Origin: Hamadaea flava
Lineage (GTDB): Bacteria; Actinomycetota; Actinomycetes; Mycobacteriales; Micromonosporaceae
Assembly: GCF_024172085.1 (NCBI RefSeq)
Contig: NZ_JAMZDZ010000001.1
Span: 8,060,001 to 8,124,000 of the forward strand
DNA: 64,000 bases
Direction: 5' to 3'
Shown: positions 5,648 through 13,113 of the stretch, in pieces
Numbering within the stretch: position 1 is the stretch's first letter
How the letters are laid out: every line of letters begins with the position of its first letter
Made by a program: the position numbers and the translations under genes
Notes under the pieces: generated by a model
Databases searched by the model: none
Told to the model about the DNA's origin: nothing
What the model saw: the letters and a program-made list of their open reading frames with translations, nothing else

Positions 5648-5779
5648 GCCCTCCAGCCATTCGTTACTACGCATGGTGATGGGCTCCATGGCGGGCCGTA
5701 AAAGTTGTCCTTGACGATCTTACGTTCATGCATTTACGGTCACCTAACTCATTCGGCACTCACTACGGGGGTAAGCGCC

Positions 5780-8700
5780 ATGTGTAGTACAGTCATACCC
5801 TTTTTCGACCGTCTGTATAGGACAGTCAGACCCAGAGCCTTGTGGCGGACCAGCTTCGTCATCGCGTCCATGCTGGTCTCGATGCTGGGCTGGACGCCCG
5901 AGGCGCACGCGGCGGCGCCTGATCTGCAGGCCGCGGCGGCGGAGGACCGCTCGGTCGCCGTTTCCGCGATCAAGACCTCGAAGTCGACCGCGCCCAAGAT
6001 GGAGCAGTACAAGGGCCACGCCACGAAGTGGCCGTCGGCCGGGACAGCGTCGGTCGACCTCCCCATGGGTGGCGACGGCCTGCGGCAATCCGGCTCGACC
6101 ACGGTGGGCGACCTGCCGGTGACCGTGACGCCGCTCGACGGCGACGGCAAGGCGCTGTCGCGATCCGCGCCCGGAAAGGCGGCCGAGGCGCCGGGGAAGG
6201 TCCGGCTGAGCGTCGTCGACCGCAAGCTCACCGAGCCCACGGGGAGCGCTTTGGCGTTCCAGGTCGGCCGCGAGGACGGCAAGCGCGGCGGTGCAGTCCG
6301 ACTTCGCGTCGACATCTCGTCCTTCTCGCACGCGTACGGCGCGGACTGGGCCTGGCGGCTCAAGGCGACCGCGGTTCCCGAGTGCTACCTGACAACTCCG
6401 ACGAAGCAAGGCTGCGCGGCGGGCAAGGTGGTGAAGTCCGCCGTTGACGGGGACGCTGGGGTGATCACCTTCGACGTCGCCCTCGACACCGCGTCGGCGG
6501 CAACCGAGACTGTGGTGGCGCTCGCCGCGTCGGGATCGTCGACCGAGACAGGCGACTTCACCAAGACCGACCTGAAGGAGTCGTCCACCTGGTCAGCCGG
6601 TGGAAACTCCGGCGACTTCACGTACTCGTATCCGCTCCAGGTCCCGCCGGTGCCCAGCAACCTCGTCCCCAGCGTCGCGTTCAACTACAGCTCGGGCGCG
6701 GTCGACGGGCAGACCGCCGGTTCCCACACTCAACCGAGTGAGATCGGCGAAGGCTGGTCCTACTCGCCGGGCTACATCGAGCGCACCTATCGGCCGTGCA
6801 TCCAGGACAACGACAACTCGCCGAACTGGACCATGGTCACTGCGGATCTGTGCTGGCGGCTGCCGAACGCGCAGATCATGCTCAACGGCAAGTCGAGCGA
6901 GATCGTGCTGGGCAGCGACAACGTCTGGCGGCTCGCGGACGACGACGGCGAGAAGGTCGAACTGCTGACCGGCGCGACGAACAACGACATCGACGGTGAG
7001 CACTGGAAGATCACCACGATGGACGGCACCCAGTACTGGTTCGGCCTGGAGGATCTGCCGAACGGCCGGACGGGCACGGGCTCGGTGATGACTGCACCGG
7101 TCTACTCGAACCGGTCCAACGAGCCTTGCTACAACTCGTCTGCCGCCATTTCGTCGCGGTGCAATCGACAGGCGTTGCGCTGGATGCTGGATTACGTCGT
7201 CGACCGCAACGGCAACGAGATCTCCTACTGGTACGGCCGGACCGCCAACAACACGGCGATGTTCAACGACTCGACCTTCACGACCGGCTACTACCGCGAA
7301 CTTCACCTGAACCGGATCGAGTACGGCACCCGTACGACGGATGCCGCGACGGTGACCGCACCGGCCCGAGTGGTATTCAACTACGGCGACCGCTGCGTGA
7401 CCACGTCCTGCACGACCCACAACGACACCAACTGGCCCGACACACCCTGGGACCTGGTGTGCACCGGCACGACGTGCGCCAACAACATGTCGCCTTCGTT
7501 CTTCTCCACGCTCCGGCTGGAGTCGGTGCAGACCCAGGTGCTCGTCAACTCGTCGTACTCGACGGTGGACAAATGGACGCTGGAGCACACCTTCCCCACC
7601 CCGGGTGACGCGTCAGCTGTCTTGTGGTTGGCCTCCATCTCGCACACCGGATATTCAGACACTTCGTCGATCGCCACGCCGCAGGTGTCGTTCAACGGCA
7701 CGCTGATGCAGAACCGCGCCGACTACGACGCCGGCGCCAGCATGCAGTCGCACAAGAAGTGGCGGATCTCCCAGGTTCTGACCGAAACCGGCAAGCAGAT
7801 CGACGTTACTTACGCCGCGAACGACGTGCACTGCGCAGCCGGGGACACGCCGAATCCGGACAACAACCCGAACCGATGTTTCCCGCAGTACTACACCAAC
7901 CCGTCCGGTGACTCCGGCTGGTCCTGGTGGCACAAACGGATCGTCAGCAGCGTCGTGGAGACCGACAGGGTCGGCGGTTCACCGGCGGTGGCGACGAACT
8001 ACGCCTATTCCACGGCAAGCACCAGCACGAATGTGCTCTGGGCGCACGGAGACGGCGCGGCCGTCTGGGGATCCTCGATCGACTACCGGTCGTGGTCGGA
8101 CTGGCGCGGCTACTCCGATGTCACCGTGACTACCGGCCCGGCGACGGGGACCAGGTCGCAGATGGGTTACGTCTACTTCCGCGGCTTGCACGGTGACCGC
8201 ACCGACACCGGAAATCGGACGGTGAGCCTTTCGCCCTACAGCGGGTCGTGGAGCGATCAGCAGCAGCGTGCCGGCCACCTCATGAACGAGATCACATACG
8301 ACCAGGCAGGCGGCACCGCAGAGAGGATCGTCCAGTACAACCCGTACGGGGCGGAGACTGGAACGCGGACGCTCACCGAGGCGTGGGCGATCCCGGCGAC
8401 CTTCAAGTCATACATCAACCGCACCGACAACGTCACTACGTACGAGGTCGACGACGCCGGCACCATGGCGAGCCGGTCCGGCACGGTGGACACCTTCGAC
8501 AGTCGGGGCCGCCTCGTCTCACGCTCGGACAAGGGCAACGTCGGCGTGGTCGACGAAACCTGCACGCTCTACGCGTACGCCCAGAACCCGGGTCTCTACT
8601 TGTACGCGTTCAAGCAGCGCGAACAGCAGTACTCGGGGGAATGCGACGCCAACGGCGCGGCGACTTCCACGGACCTGCTGTATGACCATGCCTGGCGGTT

Positions 8701-11700
8701 CGACGGCCAGACGTATGGCGCTGCGCCGTTGGAAGGCAACATCTCCCGGGACTACGTCTGGAATGTGGACGCCGTCAACGGGGTCACCGGTGAGTGGGTT
8801 TCCATCGCCGACAACGTGGTGTACGACAGCTACGGGCGTGTCACATCGTCGACCGACGGCGAGAACCACACGACCGCGACGGTCTTTACGGACAACGCCG
8901 ATCACCTGAACACGTCCAAGGCGGTCACCGTTCCCGGTGGCCTGACGACGACGACCACGTTCAACGTGCGTCGCAGCCTCCCATTGGCCATCACAGATGC
9001 CAACAGCAACGTGACCACGGCGACGTACGACGCGCTGGGCCGCCTGTTGACGGTCAAGAAGCCGGGCAACACGTCGTCGACCCCGAATGTCACGTACGCC
9101 TACAGCAACAGCCGTGACGCCGCACCGTGGATCAAGACCACCACGCTCGGCCCGAACGGTGGCAACGTCTACACCTTCGAGATCTACGACGGTCTGCTGC
9201 GACCCCGTCAGACGCAGACGACCACAGCCGACGGCAAACGGATGATCACCGACACCCAGTACGACGGCCGTGGTCTGGCGGTCAAGGTGACGACTTTCTA
9301 CAACGCGGAATCCGGTCCGTACTCGACGCTGGTGGCGTTCGCGGATACCGGCGTCGACCGCCAGACTCGGTACACCTATGACGGCCGAGGCCGTCAGCTC
9401 ACGGACGAGACCTGGTCCCAGAACGTGATGAAGTGGTATTCCGTCAGCAGCTACGGCTTCCACAGCGTCACCACTCAGCCGCCCATCGGCGGCACCGCGA
9501 CCCAGGAGCGTACCGACAGCCTGGGCAATCTGGTCGAGAAGCGCCAGTACCAGAGCTTCGCCGACTACACCGAGCTGGTCGCCGGTGACTTCACCAACGA
9601 CGGCAAGAACGACCTGTTCGGCATCCGCCCTGGTAGTGACCGTCGCATCCGATTCGTTGGCAACGGCGACGGCACCTTCGTTCCGAACACCGGCTCGGCG
9701 ACCACTGGCTGGTCCGCCTACCGCAACTGGGTGTCCGGCAACTTCGACACCGCCGGAAACCTCGACCTCATCGGCATCCGCAAATCCGATGGCGTGCTCA
9801 TGCGCTACCAAGGTGACGGCACCGGTGGATTCCCCTCGTCCGCCCAGGTGGGCGCCGGGTTCAGCGGCTACAGCGAACTGGCAGCCGGGGACTTCGACGG
9901 GGACGGCCTCACCGACCTTGTCGAAATCCGCAGCTCCGACGGCATGCTGCAGTATTCCCATTCCAAATCGACCGGCGGTGCCTTCGACACCCCGGTGGAT
10001 GTGAGCACCGGCTGGTCCGGCTATGAACACCTGGTCGCCGGGGACGCCAACGGCGATGGCAAGGTCGACCTGCTGGCGATCCGGAGCTCCGACCACGTGC
10101 TGCGTCGCTGGCTGGGCAACGGCAACGGCACGTTCGCTGCCGGAACGGATGTCTCCACGGGATGGAAGCGGGCCAACCTGGCCGCGGGCGACTTCACCGG
10201 AGACGGCAAGCTGGACCTGTTCGGGGCCTTCCCGCAGGACCAGGGCGACATTCACCTCAAGCGGTGGGCCGGCGACAACACGACCTTCACCTCGATGGGC
10301 TCCCTCGTCGCGACGAACGGTCAGGCGTGGGATAGCACGACCTACACCTACGACCGGCGGAACCAGCTGACCTCGACCAAGGGCCCGGACGGCGCCACTT
10401 GGACCTACACCTACGACCTGCTCGGCCGTAAGGTGCAGTCGGTGGATCCGGACACGGGCACCAGCACCACCAAGTACGACAAGGTCAACAACGTCATCTC
10501 CGCGACCGACGGCCGGGGCCAGCTACTGACCTACAGCTACGACGGTCTTGCTCGCAAGACGGCCATGTACAAGGACGCCGGCAAGACCGCCGCCGGTCAA
10601 CTCGCCTCCTGGACCTATTACCCCTCCGGCACCACCGGAAAGGCCGGCCAACTCGCAACCGCGACGCGGTACGTGGGTGGCAACCAGGTCGGCGGATCGG
10701 CGTACGTGCAGTCGATCACGAGTTACAACGCCGACTATCAGCCGGCACACGTAGATGTCACGGTTCCGGCCGCCGAAGGAGCGTTGGCCAATACCTACGG
10801 ATTCGACTACACGTACATGAACAACGGCCAGCCGAATACGGTGGTGTCCCCAGCGGCCGGTGGTCTCCCAGCGGAGACCCTGACCTACGGCTACGGCGCC
10901 TTCGGGCACCTCACCTCATTGGTCGCTGGATCGACGCGCATCATCGACAGCCAGACGTACACGTATGACGGCCAGGTCTACCAGCAGCTCCTGGGTACCT
11001 CGGGCAAGCAGGTTCGGCACACCTTCAGCTATGAAGCGTCCACCGGGCGCCTGCTGACCAGCCAGCTCGACACCCAGAACCAGACCACGCCGACGACCTG
11101 GGATGACAAGACAACGGACTCGTACGCCTTCGACGATGCCGGCAACGTCCGCAGCATCGCCACCAAGAACACGGGTACGCAAGACCAGGCCGAGTGCGTC
11201 ACCTATGACGGTCTCCGCCGGATGACGCAGGCGTGGACGGTCTCGACGTCGAGCTGTTCCAACGGTCCGCAGAAGGCCGGCGTCGACCCGTACCGCCTGA
11301 GCTGGACCTTCGACCTCGCGGGCAACCGCAAGACCGAAACCGGCTACAACGCCGACGGCAGCGTCGACTACCTGTCGACCTACACCTACGGCGGGACCGG
11401 CAAGCCGCTCCACTCCCTCGCCTCCGTCGTCACCACCGGCACCGGAGCGAGCACGAAGACGTACAACTACGACGCCGCAGGGAACACCACGAGCCGACCC
11501 GCCCCCGGCGGCAGCCAGCAGACCCTGAGCTGGACCGAGGACGGCAAGCTCTCCCTCGTCGACGATTCCAGCGACACCAGCATGGTCTACGACGCGAACG
11601 GCAACCGCATGATCCGCGTCGAACCCGGTGGCTACCGGACGCTCTACCTGCCAGACGGCAGCGAACTGCGAGCTAATAGCACCGGTGCAGTGGCGGCGAC

Positions 11701-12808
11701 CCGCTACTACGGTGGCGTCGCAGTCCGGTCGGCGAACACGGACTCGTCGGGCAACCTGACCAGTGGGACCACGCTGACCTGGACCATCGCCGACCACCAC
11801 GGCACCGGGTCCATCGTGGTCGACTCCTCGACGCTGTCGTGTCAGCGTCGACGGAGTACCCCGTTCGGTACGGCTCGTGGCAGCCAGCCCAATGGCTTCG
11901 GGAGCAAGGGCTTCGTCGGCGGCACCAACGACCCGACTGGGCTCGTCCATGTCGGAGCTCGAGAGTACGACCCTGTGCTCGGCCGTTTCATCAGCGTCGA
12001 CCCGATTTACGATCTCGGGGACCCGCAAAGCTGGAACGGATACGCCTACGCGAATAATGCTCCAGCTACTAGAAGCGACCCGAGTGGTACCTACGCTGTG
12101 GACGACAGTGAAGCGAATCCAGGCTCACACTCCAGTCAGAGTTGGGATCCTAAGAGCGTGGTCGCCGGGCTGCGTCAAAGCGAGGAGAATGCCAAAAGGG
12201 AAGAAAATGAGAATGCGAACAAGCCGACAGTGACTGTCTGTACCGCAACCTCGGTTTGTGTAATCAGTCCTGATGGCAAGGCAGGCCCGACAGTGTACAA
12301 CTGCAACGGCGTTGGCGCCTGCATAATCCGGAATGGGGGCTTGGGGCCGAAGACCAAATATTACTGCAATGTGCAGAACTCCTGCGACCTGACTGGCTCT
12401 CCCTATGGGGCCGTCGGTACGTTGGTTTGCAGGGCAAACCCCTGCCTCCTCACCCCGAAGCCTCAGCGAACGTTGTGTCAACGAGAGCCGGGATCGTTGG
12501 CCTGCACTTGGGATCATTTCACCTCATGGGACTATTTGGGCAAAGTTGCGAACGGAGCTGAGGCTGGGGCTACAGCGGGTGGAATCGCTGGATGCGCAGT
12601 AGGAGTCTGGGCACTTGGGGTGGGTTGCTTGGTCCTCGGTGAGCCCGGTGCAATGATCGGCGCTGTGGTTGGAGCGCTGAGCGCTACCGCTCTTGCGGGC
12701 AAGGAGTACGGCGAAGAAGACTCTAAAGTGACCTGGATTGACGGAGCATGTGGAACGCCAAGTACCTCGCCGTGTAATCCAGGTTCTCCTGAAGTGTTTA
12801 CTAGTTGA
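5780..12808 (+). CDS. Secreted RHS/YD-repeat protein, candidate polymorphic toxin
   Basis: A giant protein (2342 aa from ATG 5780; a TTG at 5705 would add 25). The N terminus has a basic region, a hydrophobic helix and a WTPEAHAA cleavage-like site, so Sec export is likely. A large beta-rich shell region follows, then YD repeats, then five FG-GAP/VCBS-like repeats (about residues 1268-1510, each with a GDFxxDGKxDL-type calcium loop), more YD repeats, and the RHS core end near 2050-2100 (GAREYDPVLGRFISVDP). The last 240 residues are unlike the rest: five C-x(4-8)-C pairs, then a glycine-zipper hydrophobic hairpin. GC and codon bias drop sharply there. In polymorphic toxins this position holds the toxin; the small gene at 12818 would be immunity. 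Toxic activity is inferred, not seen. Confidence 0.85.
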   Translation: MCSTVIPFFDRLYRTVRPRALWRTSFVIASMLVSMLGWTPEAHAAAPDLQAAAAEDRSVAVSAIKTSKSTAPKMEQYKGHATKWPSAGTASVDLPMGGDGLRQSGSTTVGDLPVTVTPLDGDGKALSRSAPGKAAEAPGKVRLSVVDRKLTEPTGSALAFQVGREDGKRGGAVRLRVDISSFSHAYGADWAWRLKATAVPECYLTTPTKQGCAAGKVVKSAVDGDAGVITFDVALDTASAATETVVALAASGSSTETGDFTKTDLKESSTWSAGGNSGDFTYSYPLQVPPVPSNLVPSVAFNYSSGAVDGQTAGSHTQPSEIGEGWSYSPGYIERTYRPCIQDNDNSPNWTMVTADLCWRLPNAQIMLNGKSSEIVLGSDNVWRLADDDGEKVELLTGATNNDIDGEHWKITTMDGTQYWFGLEDLPNGRTGTGSVMTAPVYSNRSNEPCYNSSAAISSRCNRQALRWMLDYVVDRNGNEISYWYGRTANNTAMFNDSTFTTGYYRELHLNRIEYGTRTTDAATVTAPARVVFNYGDRCVTTSCTTHNDTNWPDTPWDLVCTGTTCANNMSPSFFSTLRLESVQTQVLVNSSYSTVDKWTLEHTFPTPGDASAVLWLASISHTGYSDTSSIATPQVSFNGTLMQNRADYDAGASMQSHKKWRISQVLTETGKQIDVTYAANDVHCAAGDTPNPDNNPNRCFPQYYTNPSGDSGWSWWHKRIVSSVVETDRVGGSPAVATNYAYSTASTSTNVLWAHGDGAAVWGSSIDYRSWSDWRGYSDVTVTTGPATGTRSQMGYVYFRGLHGDRTDTGNRTVSLSPYSGSWSDQQQRAGHLMNEITYDQAGGTAERIVQYNPYGAETGTRTLTEAWAIPATFKSYINRTDNVTTYEVDDAGTMASRSGTVDTFDSRGRLVSRSDKGNVGVVDETCTLYAYAQNPGLYLYAFKQREQQYSGECDANGAATSTDLLYDHAWRFDGQTYGAAPLEGNISRDYVWNVDAVNGVTGEWVSIADNVVYDSYGRVTSSTDGENHTTATVFTDNADHLNTSKAVTVPGGLTTTTTFNVRRSLPLAITDANSNVTTATYDALGRLLTVKKPGNTSSTPNVTYAYSNSRDAAPWIKTTTLGPNGGNVYTFEIYDGLLRPRQTQTTTADGKRMITDTQYDGRGLAVKVTTFYNAESGPYSTLVAFADTGVDRQTRYTYDGRGRQLTDETWSQNVMKWYSVSSYGFHSVTTQPPIGGTATQERTDSLGNLVEKRQYQSFADYTELVAGDFTNDGKNDLFGIRPGSDRRIRFVGNGDGTFVPNTGSATTGWSAYRNWVSGNFDTAGNLDLIGIRKSDGVLMRYQGDGTGGFPSSAQVGAGFSGYSELAAGDFDGDGLTDLVEIRSSDGMLQYSHSKSTGGAFDTPVDVSTGWSGYEHLVAGDANGDGKVDLLAIRSSDHVLRRWLGNGNGTFAAGTDVSTGWKRANLAAGDFTGDGKLDLFGAFPQDQGDIHLKRWAGDNTTFTSMGSLVATNGQAWDSTTYTYDRRNQLTSTKGPDGATWTYTYDLLGRKVQSVDPDTGTSTTKYDKVNNVISATDGRGQLLTYSYDGLARKTAMYKDAGKTAAGQLASWTYYPSGTTGKAGQLATATRYVGGNQVGGSAYVQSITSYNADYQPAHVDVTVPAAEGALANTYGFDYTYMNNGQPNTVVSPAAGGLPAETLTYGYGAFGHLTSLVAGSTRIIDSQTYTYDGQVYQQLLGTSGKQVRHTFSYEASTGRLLTSQLDTQNQTTPTTWDDKTTDSYAFDDAGNVRSIATKNTGTQDQAECVTYDGLRRMTQAWTVSTSSCSNGPQKAGVDPYRLSWTFDLAGNRKTETGYNADGSVDYLSTYTYGGTGKPLHSLASVVTTGTGASTKTYNYDAAGNTTSRPAPGGSQQTLSWTEDGKLSLVDDSSDTSMVYDANGNRMIRVEPGGYRTLYLPDGSELRANSTGAVAATRYYGGVAVRSANTDSSGNLTSGTTLTWTIADHHGTGSIVVDSSTLSCQRRRSTPFGTARGSQPNGFGSKGFVGGTNDPTGLVHVGAREYDPVLGRFISVDPIYDLGDPQSWNGYAYANNAPATRSDPSGTYAVDDSEANPGSHSSQSWDPKSVVAGLRQSEENAKREENENANKPTVTVCTATSVCVISPDGKAGPTVYNCNGVGACIIRNGGLGPKTKYYCNVQNSCDLTGSPYGAVGTLVCRANPCLLTPKPQRTLCQREPGSLACTWDHFTSWDYLGKVANGAEAGATAGGIAGCAVGVWALGVGCLVLGEPGAMIGAVVGALSATALAGKEYGEEDSKVTWIDGACGTPSTSPCNPGSPEVFTS

Positions 12809-12817
12809 GGACCCGGC

Positions 12818-13021
12818 ATGTCACAGGATGGGCGTCAGGAATTGCGATTTCGTTTCGTGCTCTTTTGGTTGGCGATCCTTGGAGCATTGTCGGGTACGGT
12901 GGCGCTTTCGCTGACGCTGGTGGCTGCAGGCGGAGTGGTATTGACCTGCATGTTGTTCGGCATACTCGTACTGTCATCGCTCCTTGCTGCAATTGTTACG
13001 AGGTATTTTTCGCCTCGCTAA
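12818..13021 (+). CDS. Small two-helix membrane protein, candidate immunity protein
   Basis: A 67-residue protein with a charged N terminus (SQDGRQELRF) and two hydrophobic helices at about 14-36 and 39-61, ending in a short basic tail. It starts 9 nt after the RHS gene, with GAGGA 8-12 nt before its ATG. Its GC content and codon use are as low as those of the RHS C terminus, so the two look like one exchanged unit. Immunity genes of polymorphic toxins usually sit exactly here, and a membrane-embedded immunity protein would suit a pore-forming or membrane-active toxin. I recognise no family; the role is inferred from context. Confidence 0.65.
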   Translation: MSQDGRQELRFRFVLFWLAILGALSGTVALSLTLVAAGGVVLTCMLFGILVLSSLLAAIVTRYFSPR

Positions 13022-13061
13022 TCTGATAACAAGGTGAATTGGAGCATCGCCTCGGATCGCA

Positions 13062-13113
13062 GATGATGGGTAGGCCGACTTCGTGTCGGCGTACCCATCA
13101 TCTTTCATCTTTT
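13062..13113. terminator. Strong bidirectional terminator
   Basis: An 18-bp stem (13062-13079 with 13085-13102, one mismatch) with a TTCGT loop is followed by TTTCATCTTTT. It closes the RHS and small membrane gene unit and also faces the end of the opposing hydrolase gene. Confidence 0.85.

What the first reader, a model, noticed from the sequence alone, without database searches (positions are those of the whole stretch)
11950..13113. Candidate new toxin-immunity module: Cys-ladder plus glycine-zipper RHS terminus with a two-helix immunity protein
The last 240 residues of the RHS protein differ from the rest. Five C-x(4-8)-C pairs occur in a row (CTATSVC, CNGVGAC, CNVQNSC, CRANPC, CQREPGSLAC), three of them preceded by an aromatic or aliphatic residue and a further hydrophobic residue after the pair. 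A glycine-zipper hairpin (GATAGGIAGCAVGVWALG and a second helix) and a Cys-containing tail follow. GC and codon bias fall in this part and in the 67-aa two-helix gene 9 nt downstream, and a strong terminator closes both. By family knowledge, polymorphic toxins end in exchangeable toxin domains with immunity genes next door. I infer a disulfide-stabilised, membrane-active toxin neutralised inside the membrane. I know no described toxin with this repeat-plus-zipper layout.
Basis: partly seen in the sequence, partly recalled or inferred. Interest (0 to 1): 0.8.

Follow-up and report, generated by a model that had tools for sequence, protein, structure and literature searches.

The report
RHS membrane toxin cassette with immunity
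A soil actinomycete carries a large secreted protein whose swapped-in tail most likely pokes holes in the membranes of rival bacteria, next to a tiny membrane protein that probably protects the producer; the kind is known, but the cysteine-repeat arm in front of the hole-making part seems to be new.

Summary
After the RHS core (ends at DPSG, 12088) come a 239-aa tail with 21-residue Cys repeats and a Gly-zipper hydrophobic hairpin, then, 9 nt on, a 67-aa membrane protein. Third-position GC falls from 0.87 to 0.58. Relatives decide what it is. Four toxin-carrier tails found by similarity share the hairpin: M. gifhornensis (repeats + hairpin), two RHS tails (hairpin only), one umbrella-type ALF-repeat protein. 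All four have a small membrane-protein gene directly downstream, against 2 of 140 other assessable RHS tails (p 9e-7). Other RHS cores of the genus carry other tails. That kind is known (Tse5/Tsi5, EsxX, CDI ionophores, predicted pore-forming umbrella toxins): a new variant. New here: a hairpin shared by RHS and umbrella-type carriers, and a Cys repeat found in only two genomes and matching no family model searched. The repeat is probably a stalk or entry domain (inference). A similar hairpin also occurs inside other RHS tails, so a translocation role remains a rival. Toxicity, disulfides and immunity are untested.

The parts
5780..12088 (+). RHS carrier: signal-peptide-like N-end, SpvB, FG-GAP and YD/RHS repeats, Rhs-associated core (open frame starts at TTG 5705)
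   Evidence: Pfam SpvB, FG-GAP, RHS_repeat; TIGR03696 residues 2052-2128 of the 5705 frame; N-end judged by eye
12062..12088 (+). core-end motif PATRSDPSG (P-x4-DPxG), the boundary at which tails differ between RHS genes
   Evidence: sequence; tails of other RHS genes of the genus differ after DPxG (by eye)
12227..12466 (+). Cys repeat: units 12227-12289, 12290-12352, 12353-12412, 12416-12466; 21-residue step, C-x5-C (last C-x4-C)
   Evidence: shared with M. gifhornensis L004/L059
12476..12505 (+). fifth Cys pair (CQREPGSLAC), outside the 21-residue register
12524..12709 (+). Gly-zipper hydrophobic hairpin with GC-x2-G-x7-C (invariant in 5 of 5 aligned tails); proposed membrane toxin
   Evidence: alignment A2; hydrophobic run residues 162-205; low-confidence model gives helices 146-175 and 180-207
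12749..12775 (+). C-terminal Cys pair (tail residues 221/229), not in the M. gifhornensis tail
   Evidence: alignment
12818..13021 (+). 67-aa membrane protein (one hydrophobic run of 54 residues); proposed immunity protein
   Evidence: same position and type of gene in four relatives
13061..13103 (+). strong stem-loop after the small gene, possible terminator
   Evidence: fold z -5.2; consensus scan found none

Best explanation
An exchangeable C-terminal cassette on a secreted RHS carrier. Shown by sequence: RHS carrier, other tails after DPxG in related genes, hairpin homologous on different carriers, small membrane-protein gene next door. Inferred: the RHS shell is exported through Sec and holds the tail; the tail is released at the P-x4-DPSG motif (known release site of RHS toxins, recalled); outside the cell the 21-residue Cys units oxidise into a chain of disulfide-pinned beta-hairpins that acts as a stalk or entry domain at the target surface; the Gly-zipper hairpin inserts into the target cytoplasmic membrane, packs with itself through GxxxG faces and dissipates the membrane potential; in the producer the 67-aa protein sits in the membrane and pairs with the incoming hairpin.
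For: Tail exchange: 27 core matches in 4 genomes of the genus; I read 26 loci, the window among them; the other 25 show other tails by eye, including the two closest cores (61-62% identical, L033 and L036), whose own hydrophobic stretches are not measurably related to the window hairpin (local z 1.5 and -0.2). The own genome holds no second copy (two weak hits, E 0.04 and 0.7). Low third-position GC of tail and small gene. Hairpin homology: shuffle z 7.7, 8.7, 6.7, 7.7 between the window and L004, L005, L008, L020. All 4 of these have a gene of at most 130 aa with two hydrophobic runs, or one run of 34 or more, within 200 nt, against 2 of 140 other assessable RHS tails (Fisher p 8.7e-7; with the three RHS relatives of the same family alone, 3 of 3, p 2.1e-5). 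One of those 2, L187, is itself a 65-aa hairpin-only tail. L005, L008 and L187 show that a hairpin suffices as the end of the protein. Different carriers: RHS and a protein with eight ALF-repeat stretches (L210), the UmbC layout. The neighbours diverge faster than the hairpins except in the closest pair (L005/L008: z 18.3 and 13.6), as reported for CDI ionophores (PMC11630599, abstract and passages). Where a similar hairpin is internal (L122), the next gene encodes a protein without a hydrophobic run: the neighbour's type follows what ends the tail.
Against: No function is tested. The tail model is poor (mean pLDDT 39), and the small protein was modelled as one continuous helix 3-64 (pLDDT 91, single sequence). 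Of 148 other RHS tails the best BLAST match to the window tail is the internal hairpin of L122, ahead of a HINT-like and a further domain (38.8% over 67 aa, E 0.007), so such hairpins also serve in places where they are not the final toxin. L187's hairpin is only weakly similar (z 3.8). Short hydrophobic tails L118 and L127 have no such small gene, and only 2 of 12 assessable tails of my loose 'terminal hydrophobic' class have it. The relatives' small proteins are not recognisably homologous to the window's (z 0.5-2.4). The class-wide hairpin search gave 17 other genomes with marginal hits that looked like chance by eye.
Confidence: 0.72

Rival explanations
1. The hairpin is a translocation (pre-toxin) element and the Cys repeat is the toxin proper, acting at the cell surface or inside the target.
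For: Gly-rich hydrophobic stretches occur ahead of HINT-like and other domains in RHS tails (L043, L052, L041, L049, by eye), and the best BLAST match of the window tail among 148 other tails is such an internal stretch (L122, E 0.007).
Against: RHS tails L005, L008 and L187 consist of a hairpin alone and still have the small membrane-protein gene, while internal-hairpin L122 has a neighbour without a hydrophobic run; the immunity candidate is a membrane protein; toxin domains usually come last (family knowledge).
Confidence: 0.16
2. Not a weapon: the hairpin anchors the RHS protein in the producer's own envelope and the small gene is an assembly partner.
For: Small membrane proteins can be assembly partners (general knowledge); no toxicity data exist.
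Against: The tail is patchy (repeat in 1 of 160 Micromonospora genomes) and differs in base composition from its carrier; the hairpin occurs on unrelated carriers and the neighbours diverge fast.
Confidence: 0.07
3. A decayed tail that has lost a C-terminal enzymatic domain; the small gene is a leftover.
For: Only about 30 residues follow the hairpin; GC change shows recombination; a similar hairpin is internal in L122.
Against: Tails end soon after the hairpin also in L004, L005, L008, L020 and L187; the M. gifhornensis tail keeps repeat and hairpin at 29% identity over 164 residues.
Confidence: 0.05

Closest known systems
Tse5/Tsi5 of P. aeruginosa (PMC9637101, passages)
   Same: RHS carrier, pore-forming C-terminal tail, immunity protein with two predicted transmembrane regions
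   Different: T6SS delivery with a PAAR-like N-terminus; Tse5-CT has several putative transmembrane and amphipathic helices; no Cys repeat in the passages read; sequence relation not tested
LXG glycine-zipper toxins EsxX, TelE, TspA (PMC12744356, passages)
   Same: glycine zipper near the C-end, membrane depolarisation, membrane immunity proteins (ExiCD, TsaI)
   Different: T7SS LXG carrier; ExiC/ExiD have six predicted helices each, and EsxX also has soluble DUF5085 immunity proteins
CDI ionophore toxins, EC93 type (PMC11630599, abstract and passages)
   Same: variable entry domain followed by an ionophore domain; hydrophobic, highly variable immunity proteins; putative glycine zipper
   Different: predicted five-helix bundle, CdiA carrier
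Umbrella toxins, UmbC, including predicted pore-forming UmbC2 / 4TM tox (PMC11062931, passages)
   Same: actinobacterial secreted polymorphic toxins; a relative of this hairpin (L020/L210) ends a protein with eight ALF-repeat stretches
   Different: the window's carrier is RHS; 4TM tox is a four-helix toxin; relation not tested because its profile is not held
Tox-WTIP and two-helix immunity families Imm17 and Imm-CdiI (PMC3482391, passages)
   Same: predicted two-helix pore-forming toxin, RHS among its carriers; two-helix immunity proteins
   Different: RxxR and Wx[ST]IP signatures absent here

Membership tests
RHS polymorphic toxins | RHS/YD repeats and Rhs-associated core before a variable tail | tested here: met
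   other tails after DPxG in the genus
RHS polymorphic toxins | cognate immunity gene directly downstream | tested here: inconclusive
   position and type met in window and 4 of 4 relatives; protection not tested
Tse5-type RHS pore-formers | PAAR-like N-terminus / T6SS delivery | tested here: not met
   Pfam finds SpvB, FG-GAP and RHS repeats, no PAAR; N-end looks like a signal peptide
Tse5-type RHS pore-formers | membrane depolarisation by the tail | not testable with these tools
   needs expression
Tse5-type RHS pore-formers | tail homologous to Tse5-CT | not tested
   Tse5 sequence was not fetched
LXG glycine-zipper toxins | LXG domain | tested here: not met
LXG glycine-zipper toxins | repeated GxxxG in a C-terminal hydrophobic segment | tested here: met
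   7 GxxxG in residues 141-215; 77 of 20000 shuffles reach it
CDI ionophore toxins | five-helix ionophore bundle | tested here: inconclusive
   two helices in a low-confidence model
[quoted passage not shown]
   none in the window protein; the relative L210 has eight ALF stretches
Tox-WTIP | RxxR in helix 1 and Wx[ST]IP in helix 2 | tested here: not met
   absent from the hairpin sequence, by eye
Colicin-type pore-forming domain | sequence match to the solved domain | tested here: not met
   colicin A is the best hit but at chance level, E 0.18

The most novel reading that the evidence does not exclude
The 21-residue Cys repeat is a new delivery or entry domain, a disulfide-pinned beta-hairpin chain folded only after export, that brings a minimal two-helix pore-former to the membrane of Gram-positive rivals; the two-helix pore-former is a shared warhead of RHS and umbrella toxins in actinobacteria.
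Probability: 0.3. Interest if true: 0.7.

Novelty: new variant of a known kind. Interest (0 to 1): 0.52.

Why it matters
RHS genes are abundant in this family (49 of 51 genomes searched have the core), but how their secreted toxins enter Gram-positive targets is open to my knowledge. A cassette that occurs with and without the Cys repeat, and on two unrelated carriers, offers a minimal system: about 65 residues of toxin, about 60 of immunity, and an optional arm whose role can be tested by removing it.

Tried and rejected
Family and fold leads: Pfam, NCBIfam, PHROGs and PADLOC gave no match over a cut-off, or none at all, for the tail or small protein; solved-structure searches gave chance-level hits. 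No fold search was run because the tail model is of low confidence. Plasmids and viral contigs: nothing. The Cys repeat: the first scan of genome contigs (84,980 species) found nothing, the second, with other patterns, only M. gifhornensis; none in the 393 other genomes of the class sample (394 searched, own included); 1 of 160 Micromonospora genomes (a second, G286 = L005, has the hairpin only). These scans use short patterns or score few candidates per genome, so relatives can be missed. L158 looked repeat-like by eye but scores E 0.79. Class-wide hairpin hits L061-L077 look like housekeeping membrane proteins, transferases or wrong-frame stretches by eye. L021-L029 are secreted proteins with a C-terminal glycine zipper and no toxin carrier. 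L007 and L030 were judged chance by eye. L006 (frame with three TGA) was not followed up. The small protein alone had no hit below E 0.017 in the 100 other genomes. A toxin/immunity co-variation test over 15 pairs was not significant (Spearman 0.41, p 0.13); only the closest pair agrees.

Control set: the match list was capped; I fetched 100 of its matches that had no locus, used the 30 loci it gave, and 23 of the 27 genus matches (left out: L035, L039, L048, L058). Four tails without a stop codon in the held stretch fell out; 149 remained. One gene (L040 = L160) is in twice. Eight have less than 400 nt downstream, leaving 141 with the window. The rule for the neighbour (two hydrophobic runs, or one of 34 or more, at most 130 aa, within 200 nt) is my own; in the window, L005, L008 and L187 it is met by one long run. 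L033's 70-aa neighbour and L040's neighbour are near misses that looser rules would count. L020 comes from another family and another carrier than the control set.

Full report
What is there. The window lies in an 8.86-Mb actinomycete genome. The frame 5705-12808 encodes an RHS protein (SpvB, FG-GAP, RHS repeats, Rhs-associated core) with a signal-peptide-like start at ATG 5780 (by eye). The core ends at PATRSDPSG, nt 12088. The tail of 239 residues has 14 Cys. The first four pairs step by 21 residues: VTVCTATSVCVI, VYNCNGVGACII, KYYCNVQNSCDL, LVCRANPCLL. A low-confidence model puts short strands next to some of the pairs and two helices over residues 146-207. The hydrophobic run 162-205 lies in a stretch rich in GxxxG. 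Nine nt later follows a 67-aa protein with one hydrophobic run of 54 residues, then a strong stem-loop.

Is it acquired? Third-position GC is 0.865 in the core and 0.58 in tail and small gene; no 239-codon stretch of the core is below 0.82. The fall begins shortly before DPSG, as expected if the exchange ran through the conserved core end. RHS genes in the genus carry other tails: 27 core matches in 4 genomes, 26 loci read including the window, 25 others with different tails by eye. The two closest cores (61-62%) switch to other sequence directly after DPxG; both have hydrophobic stretches of their own, not measurably related to the window's (z 1.5 and -0.2).

Relatives of the tail. A search of 300 genomes of the family with the tail gave L004, E 2e-9, repeat and hairpin in a 2103-aa RHS frame, and four weaker hits: L005 and L008 are RHS tails made of the hairpin alone, L007 looks like chance, L006 was not followed up. 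A profile search in 397 genomes of the order gave 11 further genomes; one, L020, has the hairpin at the end of a protein with eight ALF-repeat stretches, the layout of UmbC in umbrella toxins (PMC11062931, passages). The others are nine secreted glycine-zipper proteins (L021-L029) and one chance hit (L030). L005's frame covers only the end of the RHS core, so it is an orphan cassette or a disrupted gene. The hairpins align with an invariant GC-x2-G-x7-C (5 of 5) and shuffle z-scores of 6.7-8.7 to the window.

Neighbour gene. By one automatic rule (at most 130 aa, two hydrophobic runs or one of 34 or more, within 200 nt) all four relatives have the small membrane-protein gene. Among 149 RHS tails from the family, 141 assessable, three have it: the window, L187 and L204. 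L187 is a 65-aa hairpin-only tail, weakly similar to the window's hairpin (z 3.8). Four of 4 against 2 of 140 gives p 8.7e-7; the three RHS relatives of the same family alone give p 2.1e-5. Against this stand L118 and L127, hydrophobic short tails that lack it; they carry an extra W-containing segment and may be another type, perhaps like the four-helix-looking umbrella tails L219/L220 (by eye only).

So hairpins of this sort can also be translocation parts. L122's neighbour, however, has no hydrophobic run, whereas the four hairpin-terminal relatives have a membrane-protein neighbour. I read this as a translocation hairpin that became a toxin where it ends the protein, and moved the odds slightly (0.75 to 0.72; rival 0.12 to 0.16, anchor rival 0.08 to 0.07).

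What it does. The hairpin is the shared part, stands at or near the end of five relatives, and travels with a membrane protein: it is most likely a membrane-inserting, depolarising toxin with a membrane immunity protein. Precedents: Tse5 makes pores and its immunity protein Tsi5 has two predicted transmembrane regions (PMC9637101, passages); EsxX depolarises through a C-terminal domain with a glycine zipper (PMC12744356, passages); CDI ionophores combine a variable entry domain with an ionophore domain and have hypervariable immunity proteins (PMC11630599, abstract and passages); UmbC2 is predicted to form pores (PMC11062931, passages). By analogy the Cys repeat is an entry or stalk domain. 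Repeat plus hairpin moved as one unit between window and M. gifhornensis: the similarity starts at residue 45 of both tails, while the preceding linker of M. gifhornensis resembles by eye that of another RHS tail, L157.

Novelty. The toxin-immunity idea is known; Tse5, EsxX and others precede it. I found no description of this Cys repeat, or of this hairpin on RHS carriers of actinobacteria, in the listings and passages of seven searches of the open-access library. Papers outside it and all supplements were not seen, including the list of 77 umbrella toxin families, where this hairpin may already be named. PMC10684867 and PMC12909789 were seen only in the search listing; PMC3482391, PMC13274773 and PMC5380434 in passages.

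Limits. No activity, disulfide or protection has been measured. Repeat carriers are two genomes only. The tail model is not reliable, and the small protein was modelled as one long helix.

Noticed in passing
L204 (G039:C1:6548266-6550902): RHS tail with 16 Cys in 244 residues (highest Cys fraction of 149 tails) and a 103-aa gene with two hydrophobic runs overlapping its end; L040 has similar CxxxxC..YxGG features by eye and a membrane-protein neighbour.
   Followed up: no
L122 (G044:C2:65861-68488): RHS tail whose internal Gly-rich hairpin is the best BLAST match to the window tail among 148 tails (E 0.007), followed by a HINT-like and a further domain; next gene without a hydrophobic run.
   Followed up: partly
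L157 (G037:C1:6506896-6509529): RHS tail that shares the linker of the M. gifhornensis tail by eye but has a different Gly-rich hydrophobic end and a downstream 135-aa protein with about four hydrophobic segments.
   Followed up: no
L158 (G018:C88): RHS tail with Cys pairs resembling the 21-residue units by eye (profile E 0.79), followed by a soluble, enzyme-like stretch.
   Followed up: partly
L045, L048 (own genome, C1:2147935 and C1:1887905): Short frames holding only an RHS core end plus a tail: orphan cassettes or remnants, one with a TGA inside the match.
   Followed up: no
own genome C1:5911983-5914217 and on (L215): An ALF-repeat, umbrella-type gene (1346-aa frame) with another C-terminal region: the same genome carries both RHS and umbrella-type carriers.
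   Followed up: no
L021-L029 (genomes of family f8): Secreted proteins of roughly 200-270 aa with a C-terminal glycine zipper and no toxin carrier; in L021, L024 and L025 what looks like a cobalamin-pathway reductase gene follows.
   Followed up: partly
L118, L127, L036 and umbrella-type tails L219, L220: Another recurrent tail type by eye: Gly-rich hairpin followed by a W/F-containing amphipathic segment and further hydrophobic residues, without a small membrane-protein gene meeting my rule next door.
   Followed up: partly
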